A stretch of 64,000 bases of DNA from Clitopilus passeckerianus (lineage: Eukaryota; Basidiomycota; Agaricomycetes; Agaricales; Entolomataceae), in assembly GCA_944990035.1 (NCBI GenBank), contig CALYLX010000066.1, forward strand, positions 1,302,001 through 1,366,000, in the 5' to 3' direction. Shown one piece after another: positions 2,020 through 57,964 of the stretch. The position numbers and the translations under genes were made by a program. Each line of letters starts with the position of its first letter. Positions within the stretch are counted from its first letter, which is position 1. The notes under the pieces are model-generated. The model had not been told where the DNA came from. It did no database searches and saw nothing but the letters and a program-made list of their open reading frames with translations.

Positions 2020-3790
2020 ATGCCTTCTCCCATCCACGAATTCGTCGCTCGTGCTGCAAAGGAGCAGGTATTAACAGCTTCCGTTCCGTATTAAACTCTA
2101 CTTACCTCTATCAGGCTGGAGTCCTTGCAGGCGATAATCCTTCGAGATATAACCCAGACGATCCATACAAACTCTGGGTGATTCAAACGGGTAAGTTCTC
2201 TGCCTCTTTCTTGTAGAATGCAAGCTCATGCAATACGTCAGTTATCATAATCGCCACGTCTCGTCTATGTTATGCCTTATTCTACAGGATGCGACAACCT
2301 CGTGTCGTTGCGGAGATCCTGGGGGGCATTCTCCTAGGGCCAACCGTTATGGGACGCGTGCCAGGATTCAGTCAAGCTATCTTCCCCGTCGAGTCGATCC
2401 CCATCCTTAACGTTTTCGCTACCATCGGTCTTTCCTTCTTCCTCTTCTTCGCCGGTCTGGAGATCGATGTATCCCTCATGTACAAAAACAAACGAGCCGC
2501 CGCAGCCGTATCGTTAGCAGGTCTAGTTTCACCATTCGCGTTTGGCGTTGTACTCGCTGTCGCGGTATACCGAGAATTCATCGACCCCTCTGTGAACTTC
2601 GGTCACTTCGCCCTCTTCGTCTCGGTTGGAGTTGGAATTACTGCTTTCCCTATCCTATGCCGTATGCTCGTCGAACTCAAGTTCTTCGATACCCAGCTGG
2701 GTGTCGTCGTGATCGCTGCTGGGGTTGGAAATGATATCGTTGGGTGGACCTTGCTCGCTCTTGCAGTGACCCTGGTCAACGCGGAGAATGGGATAACAAT
2801 CCTGTATATGGTTCTCGTCTGCGCTGGATACACCGCCTTTTTCATGTACCCTGTGCGGTGGACAATGCGATGGTTTGCCATCAGGTCTGGAAGTCTCGAG
2901 TCTGGAGTTCCAACCATCGGCATGATGACCATTTCCCTGGTATTGGTATTCGGATCGTCGTTCTTTACGGACATTATTGGGCTCCATGCAATCTTCGGTA
3001 TGACCCTTTTTTAACTTATTTCGTTCTGTATCTGATCACATCCATCAGGTGCATTCATGGCTGGATTAGTTGTTCCTCACGAAAATGGCCTCCCAGAGGC
3101 GATCATTCATCAACTTCAAGGTCTAGTGATGAATGTTTTCCTGCCGATCGTGAGCGCGTTCGTCTCCCCGTGGCAACCCGTCTAACGTTGCTGTCCAGTA
3201 TTTCACATTATCCGGACTGAAGACCGACTTGGGGCTTCTCAATACCGGGAAGGCCTGGGGATACACAGTCCTTATCTGTGTGATGTCCTTCTCCGGCAAG
3301 TTCCTCGGCTGCTGTATGGCCGCTAAGACCACCGGATTTAATTGGCGAGAAGCCAGTGCCATCGGTACTCTCATGACTTGTAAAGGGTGCGCTCAACTTT
3401 CAGTCTGTGGTAACAGACGCTCATCAACCCCCTTACAGACTGCTAGAAATCATCGTCGTTAACCTGGGCCTGCAATCTGGTATCCTTACTCCCCTCGTCT
3501 TCGCCATGTTCGTTGTCCATGCCTTCGTCCTCACGTTCGCCATTACACCAATGACGGCCCTTATCATCCCTGTAAAATATCGGCAGAAGATGATCGCGCG
3601 ATTTGCTGCACAAGAGGGCAGGTCATCACCGGGAGCTAGTGAAACCATGGGGGATGAAGTCGTCGAAGAAGCTCCCCAGCATACCGCGGACGATAAAGGC
3701 CCAGAGGATGATGAGGACCGGGAAAAGCAAGACGAGTCTGGTTTCAAGAAGTCCAGAGGAAATGCCCAGGTAGAAATTATGGAAGTTTAG
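2020..3790 (+). CDS. K+/H+ (cation/proton) antiporter, CPA2 family, KHA1-like
   Basis: Membrane protein expected to exchange K+ or Na+ for protons. Six exons keep frame: 2020-2067, 2115-2190, 2242-2997, 3049-3149, 3199-3386, 3439-3790. They give about 506 residues. The N-terminus is followed by a first helix leading into RMRQPRVVAEILGGILLGP, the hallmark opening of the Na_H_Exchanger domain of KHA1/KefB-type proteins. About ten hydrophobic segments follow, including AFMAGLVVPHENGLP, YFTLSGLKTDLG and MTCKGLLEIIVVNLGL. The last 75 residues are charged and acidic. Yeast and most fungal KHA1 proteins run to 800-900 residues with a large cytoplasmic regulatory domain, so this copy is short at the C-terminus. 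The start was chosen because the ATG at 2020 splices in frame into the NPSRYNPDDPYKLWVIQT segment typical of the family. It is transcribed in the same direction as the downstream BCS1-like gene. Confidence 0.88.
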
Positions 3791-4156
3791 ATTTGTACGA
3801 ACCCCCTGTAGAATTGAGAAATCGATGTAAAATAATTAGTTGTAGAATTTACTTGGATTTGCCCATCGGAATTGAGCGTGTGGCAGTGCATTCTTGTCGC
3901 TGTGGTTGACGGCGAGGAGCACGGATTTTGACACACAACCACGCAGACTTGACTCTTTCTTTCGGCGCTTTCAACGTTCGAATTCCATTTTCACCTCTCG
4001 TAGCCAATCAGTAGCAAGACCGCAAATGACTCCGTTTGCACCGCCCATAACAGCCACAAAGCTCATGTGAGCCAAAGCGCTTATAATTAGCCCAAATCGA
4101 GCCAGAATCGGGTCAAGTTACGCTGGGACCACTTGGGGCTCAAGCGCTTATCGACA

Positions 4157-4163
4157 TATAAAG
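4157..4163 (+). promoter_or_regulatory. TATA box of the BCS1-like gene
   Basis: TATAAAG lies 50 bases before the ATG at 4213, a normal spacing for a fungal core promoter. The octamer AGCGCTTA occurs twice just upstream, near 4075 and 4143. Confidence 0.4.
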
Positions 4164-4212
4164 GCGGGAGGTAAGAAGATTCAACAGCTATTTTGCGTTC
4201 CCAGACTCAGCC

Positions 4213-6399
4213 ATGCGCAGGTATCACGCAATGCAGACGATACCTCAAGTTGGAGCCCCTCAACCCAATGGATTTTGGCAGTTCGACCAGCTCTTCAACA
4301 TGTCGTTCTTGGCCAGCTTTTTCTCAAGCCAGTCGCTTTGGAATGGTCTCGCTTTCTTCGTTCTGGGTACGGTGATGGAATCTGGAAGGAGGTTTACCCA
4401 TTGGTTAATGGAGAGATTTAACTTTCGTTCGTAACCTCTTTTATACCTGTCGGACCATTGCTAAAGATAGTCTCCAGAGCTCTCCGTGACCGCCAGGTTC
4501 GACGAAGGAGATCCAGCTTACGAGTGGATTTTGCTTTTCTTGGTACGCGATCGTCGAGTTCTGTCCTATAGACACCATTCTGACTTCGGGATACATAGAC
4601 TGAGCATGAAGTATGGCACCGTACAAGGGAATTCATAGTCACGGCCAAAAATTCGAAGAGAAAGTGGGGTGTCAAACCTGGCCCTGATATCGACGACAAC
4701 GCGGACTACGTGCCCACCTACGAAGCACCCCAGCTCTTCAAATGGAAGGGATATTGGGTAGAGGTTCAACGATCTCGCCCTATCAAGACCTACACCCCAC
4801 CAGGGATGCAACCACCAGGTGCTACCATCTTCATCACGTAGGAAATTTTACCAAATCAATTCTCCATTGCTGACGCATACACACAGAATCTATACGTTGA
4901 ATATGAAGGTCCTGTCAGAATTCATTGCTGAAGCCCGACAAGGCTATAAGGAGACCAGTCGACCCAACGTCACCGTACACATTGGCGATCAGGCTCGTGG
5001 AGTATACTTTGTTGCACCGAATTGGCATGTATTGACTCGTTGTTTCAGCCGTCTTATGGACCAGGCTTCATATGGACGAATGCGAAGCACAAAGCCAGAC
5101 GTCCTCTCAGCTCTATCATCCTTATGGATGGCGTTGTTGAGAACTTGGTCAAAGACGCATCAGAGTTCATTTCGAGCGAGCAGTGGTACACTGATGCAGG
5201 CATTCCTCACCGACGGGGATACCTGCTGCATGGCCCTCCAGGAACCGGAAAGAGTACGTCCTTGCGCATATCTGTAGGTACGTCACTGAAGTACTGATCC
5301 ATGTTTCACAGCATCCACAATCTACGCTCTAGCAGGAGAGCTCGGCTTGGAGATTTACACGCTTTCTCTCTCTTCTGGATTGTATGTATGCGCTACTTTC
5401 ATCAAGTATCATTGCTAACAGCTTTTACAGTGTCGATGATTCATACCTCCAGAAGGCGGCCGCCTCCATCCCCAAGCATTCAATTTTCCTCATTGAAGAC
5501 ATCGACTGTGCCTTCCCAGTACCTCGCGATGCAGACGATGATGACGATGCCGAACAACGTAATGCCATGAATAATGGCATTTATAATGAGATTACTGGAA
5601 TCTCATATCCTGGTTCTGGCAGAAAATCTGCCGTCACCATGTCGGGACTTTTAAATGTCCTTGACGGTGTTGCTAGTGAGGAAGGCAAATTATTCTTCGC
5701 CACGGTATGTCATCCCTCAACTGTCCCATTCCCTGTCTAACCAGCCTTTAGACCAACTACGTCGATCGCTTGGATGCCGCTCTTTGTAGACCTGGAAGAA
5801 TAGACAGGAAGATTCAATACTTCTACGCCAGCCGTGCCCAAGCTTCTGCACTTTTCCTCCGGTTCTTCGACCGGCCTGGAGAAATGCCCACAGACTCGGA
5901 AAACGAGAAGCCCACTACCACCTCTTCGGACATTCCGAGCCTTGCCAAGGAGTTCGCATCCGCCATCCCCGAGCACGAGTTCTCAACAGCCGAGCTGCAA
6001 GGTTTCCTACTTGCCCACAAGCAAGACCCCCAGTCAGCCGTGAATGAAATTGGGCCGTGGGTGGCGATAGAGCTGAAGGAGCGGAAGGACAAGGTTGAGA
6101 AGGAGGCCGAGAAGAAGCGGAAGGCGAAAGAGAAGAGGGAGGAGAGGGAGGCTAGGCAGTTTGAGGGCACCATGTCGAAGTTTGCATCTGGCCTTGCACT
6201 TCACGCGCAAGCACCTCCGGCAAGCCCGCTGCCCAAGATTGATGCTAGGACTGCGTCTGTCACTCCTTCGAGTGCGGCTGGAGGGTCGCCTGTTGTGGTT
6301 ACGCAACCTGCTACACCCTCTGCAAGTTCGGATAAGGAACTGACTCCTGGGGAAGTTGCCGTCTCGGAGAAAGAAGGGCCAGATACACCAGACGTTTAG
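4213..6399 (+). CDS. BCS1-like AAA ATPase (mitochondrial chaperone family)
   Basis: BCS1 family members sit in the inner mitochondrial membrane and move folded Rieske protein; many basidiomycete relatives have unknown clients. Eight exons keep frame: 4213-4426, 4478-4542, 4599-4837, 4887-5001, 5049-5253, 5312-5381, 5431-5704, 5752-6399, for about 609 residues. A single N-terminal hydrophobic helix (residues about 35-55) precedes a BCS1_N-type domain. The AAA core follows: Walker A GPPGTGKT at about 273-280, Walker B IFLIED at about 321-326, and the sensor/arginine-finger stretch TTNYVDRLDAALCRPGRID. After about residue 490 the protein is a Lys/Glu-rich likely coiled coil and then a Ser/Pro/Thr-rich tail, an extension absent from yeast Bcs1. 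Two introns use GTTCGT or GTAGGA donors, the first of which fits the GTNNGT style of this window. The ATPase class is certain; mitochondrial location and client are inferred. Confidence 0.9.
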
Positions 6400-32805: not shown

Positions 32806-32902
32806 GGGCGTTTAGCGCAGTGGTAGCGCGTATGCTTTGCAAGAAGCACTCCGGTGCAACGAATGTGTGTATAAGGTCCAGGGTTCAATCCCCTGAACGT
32901 CC
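32806..32902 (+). tRNA. tRNA-Ala (anticodon TGC) with a 26-base intron
   Basis: The cloverleaf folds by hand. The acceptor GGGCGTT pairs with AACGTCC, the D arm is GCGC-AGTGGTA-GCGC, and the T arm is CAGGG-TTCAATC-CCCTG. The anticodon arm TATGC-TTTGCAA-GTATA forms only when 32843-32868 is removed, a normal tRNA intron position after the base 3' of the anticodon. A run of seven T follows at 32904-32910 as the Pol III terminator. CCA is not encoded, as usual in eukaryotes. Confidence 0.88.
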
Positions 32903-33439
32903 ATTTTTTTCTTCTTCTTTGTTACGAAGACCATTGAACACAGCTGACGTTGCCCCTAGAGATGAAAATTCTCCTTGCTTCTGAGGACCTCATTCACATC
33001 ACCACGACGCTGATCTCGCTACCGATGAGTCCTCTTCAATCACCCATCACGCGACAGGCGCACCCGCAGTAAACTCTGCCTTTCTTCACACCCTTTACTT
33101 CTTAGGGAGCCCTGCCCAGACGCTTGCTCGAACGGAAGCTGTTCAGATGAAAAAAGGGCCCTAAAAGGCTAAAATCACCTGCAAGTGTCCAACGGCAGCA
33201 GGCGGCATGACCTTCTTGAATCAAGGCCCTGTGGATCTCTTACTGATACTGCTGCCAATAACGGAGGTCCCTTGCAGGGACCAAGCCAGCTTACACCACT
33301 CTCATGACGAGAACCCTTCTGAGGCTCCGTATAACGTCATAAAAATCACCCGACCCCGGTTGTTTATATACTTGGCGGACAGGACAGTTTGAGGCGATTG
33401 TTCTGCTCCGCAGTTCTACGAACCTTACGATAACGAGAG

Positions 33440-49879: not shown

Positions 49880-51904
49880 GCTGCCAATGTACCTTGGATG
49901 TTACAGGAAAGGTCGAACGGGAGAAAGCGAATAATAAAGATAGTAATTATGGAACGGAAATTGAATTAGAATAGGAGGAAAGTGGAGGTGACCGTCTAAG
50001 AGGCCGGATGATGACAGGAAACGTCGAAGAGAAAGGAGTGACGATTTGATCCAAGCCCGACCGAAAATGAGAAGCCGAGAGTAAAGAACACCGTGCCGTA
50101 GGCCAAAGTCCATATCCAAATAGTGCGTAATAGTAAATGAAAAACGCGACGTAGATAACACTACAAAAACTAATTTCCCCGATCGACCATGCCATGCCGC
50201 TTGCCGTTGACGTGCCACCACACAGTTCTCCTCATTCGGTCCGAACACAAAGGAAATCAAGTCCAAAATAAAACTGCACTCACTACTCATGGCGAAAGTT
50301 TAAGGTCCAGTTGGTTATACAATGAAAAACAGGCCCTCTAGTTGTCTCAACGGAAAAGGAGAGGTAGACGTTCAGTGGAATGATGGAGTCGGGTGTGCTC
50401 GTATGACATAATCGGGACCTTGGCTCGCTTTGGAGATGCCGACACGTGGTTCGCATCTGCCGACTCCTCTTCGGTCTTCTTCCTGCCTTTTTCATCCGCG
50501 GCGTTCTCCCGCTTTTGCTCTTCCTTTTCATCTTCCGCTCGAAACCATGCCGAGCATACCTGGGCTTTTGGACTCAAAACACGTTCCCACAACGCGCCAG
50601 CCATCTCGCCACCCAATAGATTCGTATCATACGCAACGAAAGTGTAATAGCTACGCGATGACCAACATGGAATATCATCACACAACTACGACGTGGATTA
50701 TCTCGGAGTGAAATGATGTCAGGCATGACCTCTATGTTTTTTTTCTTTCATCCGCCAAAACTATTCCACCTGGAGCACACCACTCTTGCTGACATCCCGC
50801 CTGATTTTGCTCGTTCTTCTTGGAGCTCTTTGACGGTCACAGTGACGTTCTGCCGAGGCGGGGGCTTTGTATTCGCTCCAGGATGCGAGGAATCCGGAAG
50901 CCTGAACGGAAGCAAGATAGCCGGTTGACGGTTTACCTCCGCTGCTTCCGTTCGTCTCGAAAGGAAGAAGGACTTTGCCTAAGCGGATACGGGAAAATTT
51001 CGATGGATTACTCACCTGAGTTCGGATTTCGGGACGCTCTGCGAATCAGCTTTGCTGGATCATCAGTACTACTTTGGGGAGAAACTTGAAACTTCTCCTG
51101 GGATTGTCTCCGCAATTCTGACGAAGGTTCAATTCAACCGAATCATGGCGGAATGTGCAAAGGACGATCATGGCCTCTTATGGCCTTGAGAGCTACTCCT
51201 TCGCATTGAATTGACACCAACAGTACCATGACATGATATCAATGTTAGAGTTTCTCTTTTCTCTGGTTACCTCCCCGAGGCGATCATGACGTCTTGTTGG
51301 CCTTGTGGGCGCTGGTTGATACCTCCCTATCCTTATTTTTGATTCCGAACGACGGTTCAGTGACGTCTTTCATCTCTCGGACTTTTGGGCTACTCAATGG
51401 CCTCTCGGTGAAATAGGACGCGATAGAGAGTGTCCTCAGACTTGGCGTCAACCGTATGATGGCGCTATGGAGGGTGAGCGTCATTCGTGAGTTGTCTATT
51501 TGGCTTACTGCAGTGATTTTTCTAGATCACCGACGAGGATTGGAGGCGCTTATCTGTCCGCCTTGACACGACAAGCTGCAACAGTATGATCGGGCCGCGT
51601 CGAGTCTCTCAGCGACTTCGCTGCCCGAGATCTACGAGATTCAAGGCCTGTTCTCCAGTGTACCCTTTCGTTTTGGAAGCTCTATTATTTGACTTGATGG
51701 GCTCTATCAGTCTGGACTCGTTACAGGACCATAAGCCAAGCCAATTCGGGGTACGAATCATCAATTCATTCTGGACCTCTAGAATCAGATTTCTGTCTTG
51801 TGACCTGGATTGGGCGCTTCTTCTCGGTGTGGTCATGAGGTCTATACCTATATCGTAATATATCCCAGAATACCTGGGTTCGTGCCTGCTCTGTTACCAC
51901 CATC
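49880..51904. other. intergenic, nothing recognised
   Basis: About 2 kb. A minus-strand frame at 50347-50685 is Glu/Lys-rich in its middle but has no partner exons I can join. From about 51780 the sequence resembles the promoter of the second zinc-finger gene (CTTGTGACCT and CTTCTCGG blocks). Confidence 0.4.
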
Positions 51905-52383
51905 ATGAACAACACCAACAACTGGACATGCACGGTGTGCCACCAATCGATGTCTGTTGGCAATCGTCTCTCGCATGAAGGCGGGAAAAAACATAGGAAT
52001 AGAGCTGGTCTCCCAGCGAATCAGGCTGTAGGGGCAAATCAAGTCGTACAGGCGACCCAGGCTACACCAGCAAACCAGGCTGGACGGAAGCCCGCTGGCA
52101 AGCACAGACCCGATGAAGCCATGGCCGTTCCTTTGTCCCCGAGAGTAGGGCTAACATGATTCATGCTCTAGTACTCGATTTCTCCCTCGATCGATCGGTA
52201 GAGGAGGTCAGAGAGCAGTTGTATACGTTTCATCGCCCAGGTCAACAGCGATTCTTGCCTCCGTGGCCATACGAGGCATGGCCGTGCGATAAGTCGAAGG
52301 GAAAAGCGAAGCCATCTGTGACAAAGAAGCAAGGAAAGAAACAAGGAAAGAAACAAAGGTCTCGTGCAATTCGGGATACCTAG
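51905..52383 (+). CDS. small U1/matrin-like zinc-finger protein, copy 1 (gene model uncertain)
   Basis: The ATG at 51905 opens a frame of 84 codons with WTCTVCHQSMSVGNRLSH followed by EGGKKH, that is C-x2-C-x11-H-x5-H. This is like U1- or matrin-type fingers that bind RNA or spliceosomal partners. A Gln/Ala/Asn-rich stretch follows. The frame stops at 52157-52159, where the TGA overlaps the ATG (52156) of a second frame. That frame encodes LDFSLDRSVEEVREQLYTFH and a Lys-rich end (KKQGKKQGKKQ), stopping at 52383. In copy 2 a 41-base intron joins the equivalent parts. Here no GT-AG pair keeps the frame, so copy 1 may be a two-part pseudogene, use a non-standard donor, or encode only the finger. 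Confidence 0.55.
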
Positions 52384-52430
52384 TCGAGGAGAATTACTTA
52401 TGTATGGGATGTACGTTCTAATTTTGTATA

Positions 52431-52476
52431 GAAAGCAAAGGGGGTAGATCAACCGCGATCTACCCCCGTTGCTTTC
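52431..52476 (+). other. 3' hairpin after zinc-finger copy 1
   Basis: Arms of 20 bases (52431-52450 and 52457-52476) pair with one mismatch around a 6-base loop AACCGC. It starts 48 bases after the stop at 52383, so it probably lies in the 3' untranslated region. A homologous hairpin follows copy 2. Confidence 0.75.
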
Positions 52477-52784
52477 AGAATTGACAATTTCTCCGCAGCG
52501 AATGGGGCATACGATAAGGACGGGCCAGTTCGTGGGCCAATATGATGTAGGCACTCAATGCTCAGCTTTTTGGTGTCGGAGTTCCTCTGTGTAAACGGTC
52601 GCTCATCCTTTGTTAAATACCCTCGCGTCAACCCGAATCAGGCCTCTATACATTACTGCGTTACCCAGGATCTCTCATATCAGACCTTGTGACCTCTTCG
52701 GAGCGCTACTTCTCGGCTACATCCTATATATAAGCTCAACAAGGTGTAGGTATTGTTTCACACACCCACTCCGCCGTCACTACC

Positions 52785-53317
52785 ATGAACCATCCAAGTG
52801 CCTGGCTGTGTACAGTGTGCACTAAGTCCATGTCCGTAGGTAACCGCGCTTCGCACGAAGCGGGCGCCAAGCATCAGAAGAAGTTGCAAAACGCAACTGC
52901 GTCGACGGCGAACCCAACGGCGAGCCAGACTGCGATTCAAGCAACGACAATTCCAACAGTGACTCAATCAACAGCGATTCCAACAGTAACCCAAACAACG
53001 AGTCAAAGTACCACGCGCAAGGCCAAATGTAAGGGAAGAGGAAAATGTAGTGGTATGTGATGAATTCTGTCATTTGACCACGGCTAATGTCAGGCACACC
53101 TATAGCCTACAGTGATTTCGATTCTATGTCCCCCGCAGAATTCGAAGATTTCATGTACGCAAGTTTAGGGGAAGATCCTGAGGATGGAATGATACGTCGA
53201 GCCAGTAGGGGATATGGATATGCATCATACGAAGGCTCGATGAGGAATGCGGGATTATATGTGATGCAGAAGTATGGGTTCAATGGGTTTGGCGACTGTG
53301 ACGATCGCGATTACTAG
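52785..53317 (+). CDS. small U1/matrin-like zinc-finger protein, copy 2
   Basis: Two exons, 52785-53052 and 53094-53317, joined through GTATGT with a 41-base intron; about 163 residues. The finger WLCTVCTKSMSVGNRASH then EAGAKH is C-x2-C-x11-H-x5-H with the same KSMSVGNR/QSMSVGNR core as copy 1. A Thr/Gln/Ala-rich region with an internal repeat (IPTVTQ twice, in TTIPTVTQ and TAIPTVTQ) and a Lys-rich stretch follow. The second exon is acidic and aromatic (SDFDSMSPAEFEDFMYASLGE), ending GFGDCDDRDY. The cellular role is unknown; nucleic-acid binding is inferred from the finger. Copies 1 and 2 are tandem duplicates including part of the promoter. Confidence 0.7.
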
Positions 53318-53370
53318 TTGAAGAGAGAAATTATTAGGCATGTATGTTTCGAATCCGTTGTTCAAGTTGT

Positions 53371-53419
53371 GGAAACCAACGAGGGTAGTTCAAGTCTTGA
53401 ACTACCCTCGTTGCTTTCC
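53371..53419 (+). other. 3' hairpin after zinc-finger copy 2
   Basis: Arms of 23 bases (53371-53393 and 53397-53419) pair with one mismatch around a 3-base loop GTC. It starts 54 bases after the stop at 53317. The stem shares its base and middle (AAAGCAACG.GGGTAG) with the hairpin after copy 1. Confidence 0.78.
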
Positions 53420-54209
53420 AAACGATCTCCATATCAAGCTGGTACAGTATGATGTTACATACAGACCAGCCGTCGGATCATAATATGGCCTTTTTAGAAA
53501 CCTGTAAAAGTCGACGCATCCCAATGGCAATTGGCAGGCCCTGATTGGGCGGCCCTCATGGTCGGGACTCGGAAGACTCAGCTGATGCTTACACTTGATT
53601 GTTTTGAACGCCTTCGAAAGTATCCGAGCCAACCAAACTCATCGTTTCTTGCTTTAGAGTTTAGGGTCTAGACTCGCCACTCAAGTTTACATTCTCCACA
53701 AGTAGCGACATACACGAGAAACCTACATGTACTAGCCAGCAGGATATCTTTCTATAAAAACTCTGTATTTTTACAGTTGATAGTACGCAAAATCTAAGCC
53801 ACCTCCCGATTACACACATTGATGTGCTGAAACGTAATGCTAATCGGAGGTTTTTCTGCCGATTAGGGCACCCCTGCTTCGTTCACATCTGTCCTTGTAT
53901 TCAGAAACGAACCCTGATGAGTGGAGCCTATTCCTGTGCGCTTCGCTCATTGTGTGATCTTCACCATGCCTCGTGTCTCCACATTCAATTGATTCGGAAG
54001 CCAAGGCACAATTGCGTAACTCGTGGCTTAACAAACGATTAGCGTTCTTTCAATCATTATGGATTCTAAAGATACCGTTCTTGAAGACTTGAACGAGTCG
54101 GGCTTTATCGGGCTATGTCAGAATCCGCCAACGGTCTGGGTAGAAATGAGACGACAATAGACTCCTTTTGTATCTTGTTTCTTGCCTTACCTTTGTCACT
54201 TCCTTCACC
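53420..54209. other. intergenic, upstream of the P450
   Basis: No gene in about 0.8 kb; it should hold the promoter of the P450 at 54210. Confidence 0.4.
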
Positions 54210-56613: not shown

Positions 56614-57964
56614 TCAAACTATTATCCCAGCTGCGGCAGGAAGGTCCGAGATGTCGACTGCGGCTTGGCTGTCGATGTTTTGACCCTGGAGGGCGATGGA
56701 TGAAGGAAGCAGCCGTATACGGCGTGATTTGAGATAAAGCTTGCCCTTCTTTCCGAAATAGCGTTCGCTCTGTATTAGGGTTAGCTATCGTGTATGTCAC
56801 CAAAGACTCATGTACTGACCTCAAAGCTCCAGCATTCATTGGCCCTCACCCAGTTGCCTAGGCCATCCACATAAATCTTGACTTGTTCGTCAATGAGGTC
56901 AGACCCAAAGGACGGGAGGTTGTGCATCAAGTTAAGGAATTCGTCTGCTAGCCGATCGTGGTAGTCACTGATCCACTGGAGAGCATCGTTTAAATTGCAC
57001 TTCCTTTCATCTTTGACGATGCGGACGAAGTTGTGGGTGTCATCGCCTCGAGCTTGCCTGTTGGACATTATTAGAACTGGGCGTGATGTAGACCTTTGGC
57101 AAGGCAACTCACTCGACGTTGTAGGAGTAAAGGTCGTTTCCGATGAGGATCATATCGACGCATAGCTCGAGGAGTTTGGCAACAATGGGGTGATCCAGGA
57201 CTTCGTCTTCGAGATCCATTTCGAGAGTGAGCAGATCCAGTGATGGGATTGCTCCTATCGTCTGGCGCCTCAAGATAAAGTAGCTCTTGACGTCCCTGAT
57301 ACAGTGAATTTCTCGGTCTTGGGCTTGCTGGACAACAGCGTCGACGTATCGTTGAAAATTTCTCACGAATCGTCGCTGTGAGGAGGGAGTGGCGGTTCTG
57401 ATCGCATTGGCCCAGAACCTGTGGGTGTTGATTAAACTTTTGCGCCGATCATTCATGAAGACGTAAAAACATACTGTCGGGTGACCTCCCCTCCTATCCA
57501 TTCACCAGCGGGACGAGGCTCGAGTGGAGTATGAAGAGCGTCCATGACAATATCGGCTTGCAGGCGGGCTTCACGTCCGCTAGCGACATCTGAATATTCG
57601 TCGATGACGAAGAACATGTTCATCAGATCGCAAGCAATGCGAAGGCCATCTATTCAGATCTCTTAGAGACCCTTTGACATCTTAGCGATGAAATGAACTG
57701 ACCTCGACCGAGATGAGGGTAGGCTAAAGAGCCAAGTAACCCTTTGAAGTGGGTCAGTATAAGGTGAATAGATGGTTAGAGAGTGTAGAACGTACCGAAA
57801 GCACAACGATCGAACGCGTCTTGCGACTTCGGGGTGAAGGCACCACATGATCGCATCCAGTCTGCTGCCTCTTCCTCGCAGACCTTTTGGTGTGGGTTGA
57901 GCACCCTCTTCCAGGGCCAGTTGCGAAGGGTGTTGGGGATGATGAAGTACGGTGTATTGAGCAT
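56614..57964 (-). CDS. sesquiterpene synthase (class I terpene cyclase)
   Basis: Cyclises farnesyl diphosphate to a sesquiterpene in the cytosol. Six minus-strand exons: 57796-57964, 57703-57741, 57475-57649, 57113-57418, 56820-57057, 56614-56769; about 360 residues, the usual size for basidiomycete enzymes. The metal-binding aspartate motif is DEYSD at about residues 86-90 (the DExxD form). The second is the NSE triad NDLYSYNVE at about 222-230. RYFGKK near the C-terminus matches the conserved RY pair of the family. The opening [20 protein letters not shown] is typical of the clade that includes protoilludene synthases, but the product cannot be told from sequence by eye. Confidence 0.93.

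What the first reader, a model, noticed from the sequence alone, without database searches (positions are those of the whole stretch)
51905..53419. Two tandem zinc-finger genes, each with a homologous 3' hairpin showing compensatory changes
Long hairpins stand 48 and 54 bases after the two stops (52431-52476 and 53371-53419). Aligning the stems, the segment GGGGGTAGATC/GATCTACCCCC of one corresponds to GAGGGTAGTTC/GAACTACCCTC of the other. Two stem positions changed on both arms (G-C to A-T, A-T to T-A), while the base of the stem AAAGCAAC stays. Paired change suggests that the fold is kept by selection, for example as an RNA element in the 3' untranslated region, or that the palindrome renews itself. 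The small genes encode U1/matrin-like fingers with low-complexity tails, so an autoregulated RNA-binding protein is one testable idea.
Basis: partly seen in the sequence, partly recalled or inferred. Interest (0 to 1): 0.75.

Follow-up and report, generated by a model that had tools for sequence, protein, structure and literature searches.

The report
Inherited hairpins behind twin finger genes
Two neighbouring, anciently duplicated zinc-finger genes of a mushroom-type fungus each carry a closely similar long hairpin just after the stop codon, kept while most of the sequence around it changed, so it probably does a job at the end of their messages; what job is untested.

Summary
H1 (52431-52476) and H2 (53370-53420) are the window's two strongest hairpins, 48 and 53 bases after the stops of a tandem pair of finger genes. 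Of the two paired changes between H1 and H2, one (G-C/A-T) also separates the haplotypes of H1. But 3 of 20 stem pairs are broken in some copy. No further copy was found in the genome, against a scattered mobile palindrome. The stem arms are 85% identical between genes whose finger DNA is 62% identical with scrambled third bases and whose 3' flanks beyond the hairpin do not align. Template-switch repair could keep arms complementary but does not explain why the hairpins stayed alike. A distant paralogue pair (C126) lacks the hairpin; no other species could be reached. Best reading: a vertically inherited stem-loop in the 3' untranslated region acting on message ends, as proposed for inverted repeats and stem-loops in yeast. 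Autoregulation by the encoded U1/JAZ-like finger is possible but untested.

The parts
51797..51827 (+). promoter-side element shared by both genes (CTTGTGACCT...GCGCTTCTTCTCGG), 78-108 bases before the g1 ATG
   Evidence: score 28, 200 shuffles at most 27; exact pattern only at this locus and its haplotype
51905..52097 (+). g1 exon 1 with finger W-x-C-x2-C-x11-H-x5-H; exon end uncertain (52097 if a GC-AG intron, by eye; the frame stays open to 52159)
   Evidence: haplotype dN 0.093, dS 0.202 over 51905-52144, which may include intron
52172..52383 (+). g1 exon 2 with stop codon at 52381-52383
   Evidence: frame read; intron phase inferred by eye
52431..52476 (+). hairpin H1, 48 bases after the g1 stop
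52686..52716 (+). promoter-side element before g2, copy of 51797-51827
52785..53052 (+). g2 exon 1 with finger
53106..53317 (+). g2 exon 2 with stop; intron 53053-53105 (GTATGT...CTATAG), inferred by eye
53370..53420 (+). hairpin H2, 53 bases after the g2 stop

Best explanation
H1 and H2 descend from one hairpin that lay behind the ancestral finger gene before the tandem duplication (inferred from shared sequence, position and orientation). Selection on both sequence and pairing has kept it since (inferred). Lying 48-53 bases after the stop, it is most likely transcribed into the 3' untranslated region and acts as a strong stem-loop next to the message's 3' end, shielding it from 3'-to-5' decay or fixing where cleavage and polyadenylation occur. 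Shown: the hairpins, their likeness, their occurrence in both haplotypes, the paired changes, and no copy found elsewhere in the genome at the sensitivity used. Inferred: transcription, the RNA level, the molecular role.
For: Four hairpins at one place relative to the stop in two genes and two haplotypes. Arms 16/20 and 18/20 identical between H1 and H2, while finger-coding DNA is 45/72 identical and third bases agree in 5 of 16 same-residue codons. The best alignment of the 3' flanks covers just the hairpin (score 41, 200 shuffles at most 27); the sequence after it does not align (P 0.24). 15 of 20 pairs invariant, 2 changed on both sides, 75 of 80 cells paired; 12 of 500 shuffles reach that percentage. 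Paired-change P 0.003-0.008. Between haplotypes 4 changes in 97 bases against 12.8 in local noncoding windows, P 0.041. Alleles group by gene (1-2 differences) not by haplotype (5-6), so no recent copying from one hairpin to the other. A promoter element is also shared, fitting duplication of the whole unit. Precedent: yeast inverted repeats are enriched near poly(A) sites (PMC6420913, abstract and passages) and stem-loops placed near message ends stabilised them (PMC4178928, passages).
Against: No transcript data. 3 of 20 stem pairs are broken in one or two of the four copies, and two other measures are ordinary: 'pairs changed on both sides' is reached by 98 of 500 shuffles and 'further pair types' by 400 of 500. 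The C126 paralogue pair has no hairpin (3' flank z 0.45 and 0.10). Haplotype-level constraint is modest: 31% of local noncoding windows are as conserved as H1 and 6% as H2; in the whole 21 kb aligned block, coding included, 62% and 25% are. At a gene-pair divergence of only 0.3 per site the likeness of the arms would be seen in 10% of cases without constraint; that the divergence is larger rests on 16 codons. H2 is intact on C67, with one added mismatch, although g2 there is frameshifted and carries a stop, so conservation does not strictly follow the gene. Yeast repeats peak about 100-130 bases after stops, farther than here. Four sequences are few.
Confidence: 0.5

Rival explanations
1. A functionless DNA palindrome kept complementary by template switching during replication: a change in one arm is copied to the other, giving paired changes without selection.
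For: The mechanism is described and can yield compensatory changes in one event (PMC8794818, abstract, start of introduction and passages). H2 has only 1 nt between its arms, which suits such copying (inference). C67 g2 is broken yet H2 stays.
Against: It explains pairing but not why the arms of H1 and H2 remain 85% identical while the sequence after them no longer aligns and third bases are scrambled. The A.G mismatch of H1 and C.C mismatch of H2 persist in both haplotypes, so repair is not efficient. Such palindromes are rare in the 184 kb scanned.
Confidence: 0.2
2. The hairpins are younger than the gene duplication: one was copied to the other gene, or a small palindromic element inserted twice.
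For: Hairpins are far more alike than the sequence after them.
Against: No copies found elsewhere in 64.8 Mb (with the sensitivity limits the tool states). Similar position and same orientation after both stops. Alleles group by gene, so any copying predates the haplotype split. A promoter element is shared as well.
Confidence: 0.12
3. A small-RNA (milRNA-like) precursor: a Dicer-like enzyme cuts the stem and the better conserved 3' arm is the product.
For: The 3' arm is the better kept arm between genes (18/20 against 16/20). Genes with two RNase III matches exist in this genome. [quoted passage not shown]
Against: Stems of 20-25 bp with tiny loops are short for Dicer products (general knowledge). 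The 15-nt core with up to 2 mismatches shows no excess in the genome (204+196 matches against 287+289 for the reversed control; only the first places were listed).
Confidence: 0.08
4. A DNA-level element: a palindromic protein-binding site or nucleosome-excluding boundary between closely spaced tandem genes.
For: Sequence and symmetry are both kept; most yeast inverted repeats at gene ends have low nucleosome occupancy (PMC6420913, abstract).
Against: A 40-50 bp palindrome is longer than usual binding sites (general knowledge). H2 lies behind the last gene of the pair, not between the two.
Confidence: 0.1

Closest known systems
Short inverted repeats near poly(A) sites in Saccharomyces cerevisiae (PMC6420913)
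   Same: Inverted repeats after the stop, thought to act at the RNA level
   Different: The yeast ones near poly(A) sites are rich in A/T and occur genome-wide, peaking about 100-130 bases after stops; here G+C-containing, 20-25 bp, one sequence type, at one locus, 48-53 bases after stops
Stabilising stem-loops near the ends of yeast mRNA isoforms (PMC4178928)
   Same: Strong stem-loop expected near the message end, possible effect on decay
   Different: No transcript or decay data here; the G-C-rich stem-loops tested in yeast were introduced, not a conserved sequence
U1C/JAZ-type C2H2 zinc fingers (TUT4 and JAZ, PMC6488673)
   Same: C-x2-C-xn-H-x5-H spacing; JAZ finger 3 contacts double-stranded RNA without sequence specificity
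   Different: Here x11; zf-U1 does not reach its cut-off; no RNA binding tested
Template-switch-maintained hairpins (PMC8794818)
   Same: Paired changes in a near-perfect stem
   Different: Sequence likeness between duplicates is kept as well, and mismatches persist

Membership tests
3'-untranslated-region stem-loop element | inverted repeat shortly after the stop of a coding gene | tested here: met
   48 and 53 bases after the predicted stops
3'-untranslated-region stem-loop element | present in the transcript near the poly(A) site | not testable with these tools
   no transcript data for this genome
3'-untranslated-region stem-loop element | pairing kept through changes | tested here: inconclusive
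   2 of 20 pairs changed on both sides, 3 of 20 broken in some copies
mobile palindrome or MITE | many copies in the genome | tested here: not met
   no copies found beyond this locus and its haplotype
template-switch palindrome | several clustered changes explained by one event | tested here: inconclusive
   the paired changes are isolated single pairs; the paper calls isolated changes uninformative about the mutation process
milRNA precursor | discrete small RNA from one arm | not testable with these tools
   no small-RNA data; RNase III genes present
zf-U1 (PF06220) | score above the curated cut-off | tested here: not met
   11.6 and 12 bits against 22
U1C/JAZ-type finger | C-x2-C-xn-H-x5-H spacing | tested here: met
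   C-x2-C-x11-H-x5-H in g1, g2 and C126 g1
known Rfam RNA family | match at gathering score | tested here: not met
   only one tRNA (32806-32903) in the window

The most novel reading that the evidence does not exclude
An orphan family of small U1/JAZ-like finger proteins binds a dedicated hairpin in the 3' untranslated region of its own messages, and the two duplicates, sharing the hairpin and a promoter element, cross-regulate each other: a self-contained RNA-level feedback loop that duplicates as a unit.
Probability: 0.1. Interest if true: 0.65.

Novelty: new member of a known kind. Interest (0 to 1): 0.4.

Why it matters
If the reading is right, this is a gene-specific RNA element in a fungus, probably an agaric, that has outlasted the silent sites of its own finger exons. 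It offers a clean test case for telling selected pairing from template-switch repair, because two paralogues and two haplotypes give four copies with both paired changes and tolerated mismatches. The encoded finger, of a spacing type that includes double-stranded-RNA binders, makes an autoregulatory loop directly testable.

Tried and rejected
Mobile palindrome: rejected, no further copies found. In one search, 18 rows are 14 distinct places; 3 are this locus (H1, H2, C67 H1; C67 H2 is missed because of its changed base). Beyond the 8-base arms that the pattern demands, the three pair at 11-12 of the next 12 positions, the others at 1-6 of 12 (which checked 13 of the 14; the second C52 place has the same letters as the first). 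A general habit of this genome to put hairpins after genes: not seen in 184 kb; I could not sample more of the genome. A third, older unit upstream of g1: a 17/19 repeat (51572-51590 with 53435-53453) beats its shuffles (P 0.005 and 0.02), but no hairpin remnant of score 12 or more lies there. Exon 2 of g1 and g2 does not align as DNA (P 0.80). More family members: besides the C66/C67 and C126 genes, one search gave two weak hits (C157 E 0.07, C142 E 0.31); neither shows the x11 finger in its locus. Relatives in other species: two protein searches with g2 gave 5 and 33 candidates and no hit (E up to 0.001, up to 10). The database does hold agaric proteins (rhamnosidase control), but small unannotated proteins could be missed. 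Known RNA family at gathering score: none at the locus. Solved structures: one weak hit judged unrelated (E 0.79). AlphaFold of the first 45 residues of g2 without an alignment: pLDDT 56, uninformative, no fold search made. Literature: no paper on such a fungal element surfaced in searches (listings; five papers then opened in part, as cited).

Full report
Setting. The window lies in an unnamed 64.8 Mb, 160-contig genome. A rhamnosidase control protein of the window has its best named relatives in mushrooms such as Sphagnurus, Tricholomella and Mycena (that these are agarics is recalled), so this is probably an agaric. Contig C67 is the second haplotype: the 9.5 kb around the genes align at 90% from end to end; over the window 92% of aligned bases agree outside gaps, with 5335 of 64000 bases unaligned. 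RNase III matches also come in pairs on two contigs.

The genes. g1 (51905-52383) and g2 (52785-53317) are tandem genes that I model with two exons. Exon 1 encodes a finger W-x-C-x2-C-x11-H-x5-H and a low-complexity tail; exon 2 of the two genes does not align as DNA. 51905-52144 of g1 has dN 0.093 and dS 0.202 between haplotypes, consistent with a coding exon. The g1 5' splice site is unsettled (phase suggests a GC-AG intron from 52098; by eye). On C67, g2 carries a 20-base deletion in the finger and a stop in exon 2. A second, distant tandem pair sits on C126; its second gene has a stop in the finger. Two further hits were weak; the tool warns that its counts are lower bounds.

The hairpins. 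H1 and H2, with their C67 alleles, are the strongest palindromes in the 184 kb scanned. Their energies lie 9-11 standard deviations below shuffles. No copies of the hairpin sequence were found elsewhere; the tool scores only its best candidates, so weak copies could be missed.

Paired changes. On the four-copy alignment 15 of 20 pairs never vary, 2 change on both sides (G-C/A-T; A-T/T-A), 3 are broken in one or two copies. 75 of 80 cells pair; 12 of 500 shuffles reach that, and sliding the partners drops it to 32-48%. The number of pairs with double change alone is reached by 98 of 500 shuffles. The G-C/A-T change separates the two haplotypes of H1. If 4 and 2 changes fell at random on the two arms, both 3' changes would be compensated in 0.3-0.8% of cases; two random changes in the H1 stem would match up in 0.9-1.7%. 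These tests are not independent, and the case was picked for being striking.

Constraint. Between genes, the arms are 34/40 identical, the finger DNA 45/72, third bases of same-residue codons 5/16. The best alignment of the 3' flanks covers just the hairpin, and the sequence after it does not align. Without constraint, 6 or fewer differences in 40 would be seen in 10% of cases at 0.3 substitutions per site, 0.2% at 0.5, and in none of 20000 trials at 0.8. Between haplotypes the constraint is weaker: 3 changes in 46 and 1 in 51 against local noncoding means of 6.1 and 6.7, jointly P 0.041; against the whole 21 kb block neither hairpin stands out (62% and 25% of windows as conserved). Alleles group by gene, so the hairpins have not been homogenised recently.

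What it is. Shared position, orientation, sequence and a private promoter element (the C67 g1 copy differs by one base) point to descent from one ancestral gene unit. Self-repair of palindromes by template switching (PMC8794818) can keep arms complementary but would let H1 and H2 drift apart; they did so only slightly. So selection on sequence and pairing is favoured; with the RNA role attached I put it at even odds. In yeast, inverted repeats are enriched near poly(A) sites (PMC6420913) and stem-loops near message ends stabilise them (PMC4178928), which is the mechanism I consider most likely.

Autoregulation. Fingers with C-x2-C-xn-H-x5-H spacing can bind double-stranded RNA, without sequence specificity in JAZ (PMC6488673, passages). 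The window's fingers fit the spacing but not the Pfam zf-U1 cut-off, and the structure prediction was uninformative. Non-specific binding alone would not explain why the hairpin's sequence is kept. The idea stays open.

Limits. One genome, four hairpins, no transcripts. The C126 paralogues show that the family can exist without the hairpin (stops there placed by eye). No other species was reachable: the held relatives do not include this genome's kin, and the protein searches with g2 found nothing.

Noticed in passing
L008 (C67:244500-254000), about C67:248480-248970: The g2 allele on the second haplotype has a 20-base deletion in the finger and an in-frame TAA in exon 2, so g2 may be intact in only one haplotype.
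   Followed up: partly
L009 (C126:72000-81000), about 3772-4281 and 4562-4909: A second tandem pair of the same finger family; its second gene has a TAA inside the finger, and no second-haplotype copy turned up.
   Followed up: partly
51797-51827 and 52686-52716: A 31-base promoter-side element shared by the two genes; its exact pattern occurs in the genome only here and on the other haplotype.
   Followed up: yes
51572-51590 and 53435-53453: A 17/19 direct repeat 1863 bases apart, upstream of g1 and just after H2; possibly the trace of an older duplication.
   Followed up: partly
57109-57501: Part of a terpene synthase gene (Terpene_syn_C_2, E 1.9e-25) on the minus strand, near a probable P450 gene from about 54210 (its PPGPKGLPILGN stretch recalled as P450-like; no Pfam match for the short piece): a possible terpene cluster.
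   Followed up: partly
L024 (C67:290000-299999), 5616-5672: Another hairpin (score 14, 14-base G+C-rich arms, 29-nt loop), outside the collinear blocks shared with the window.
   Followed up: no
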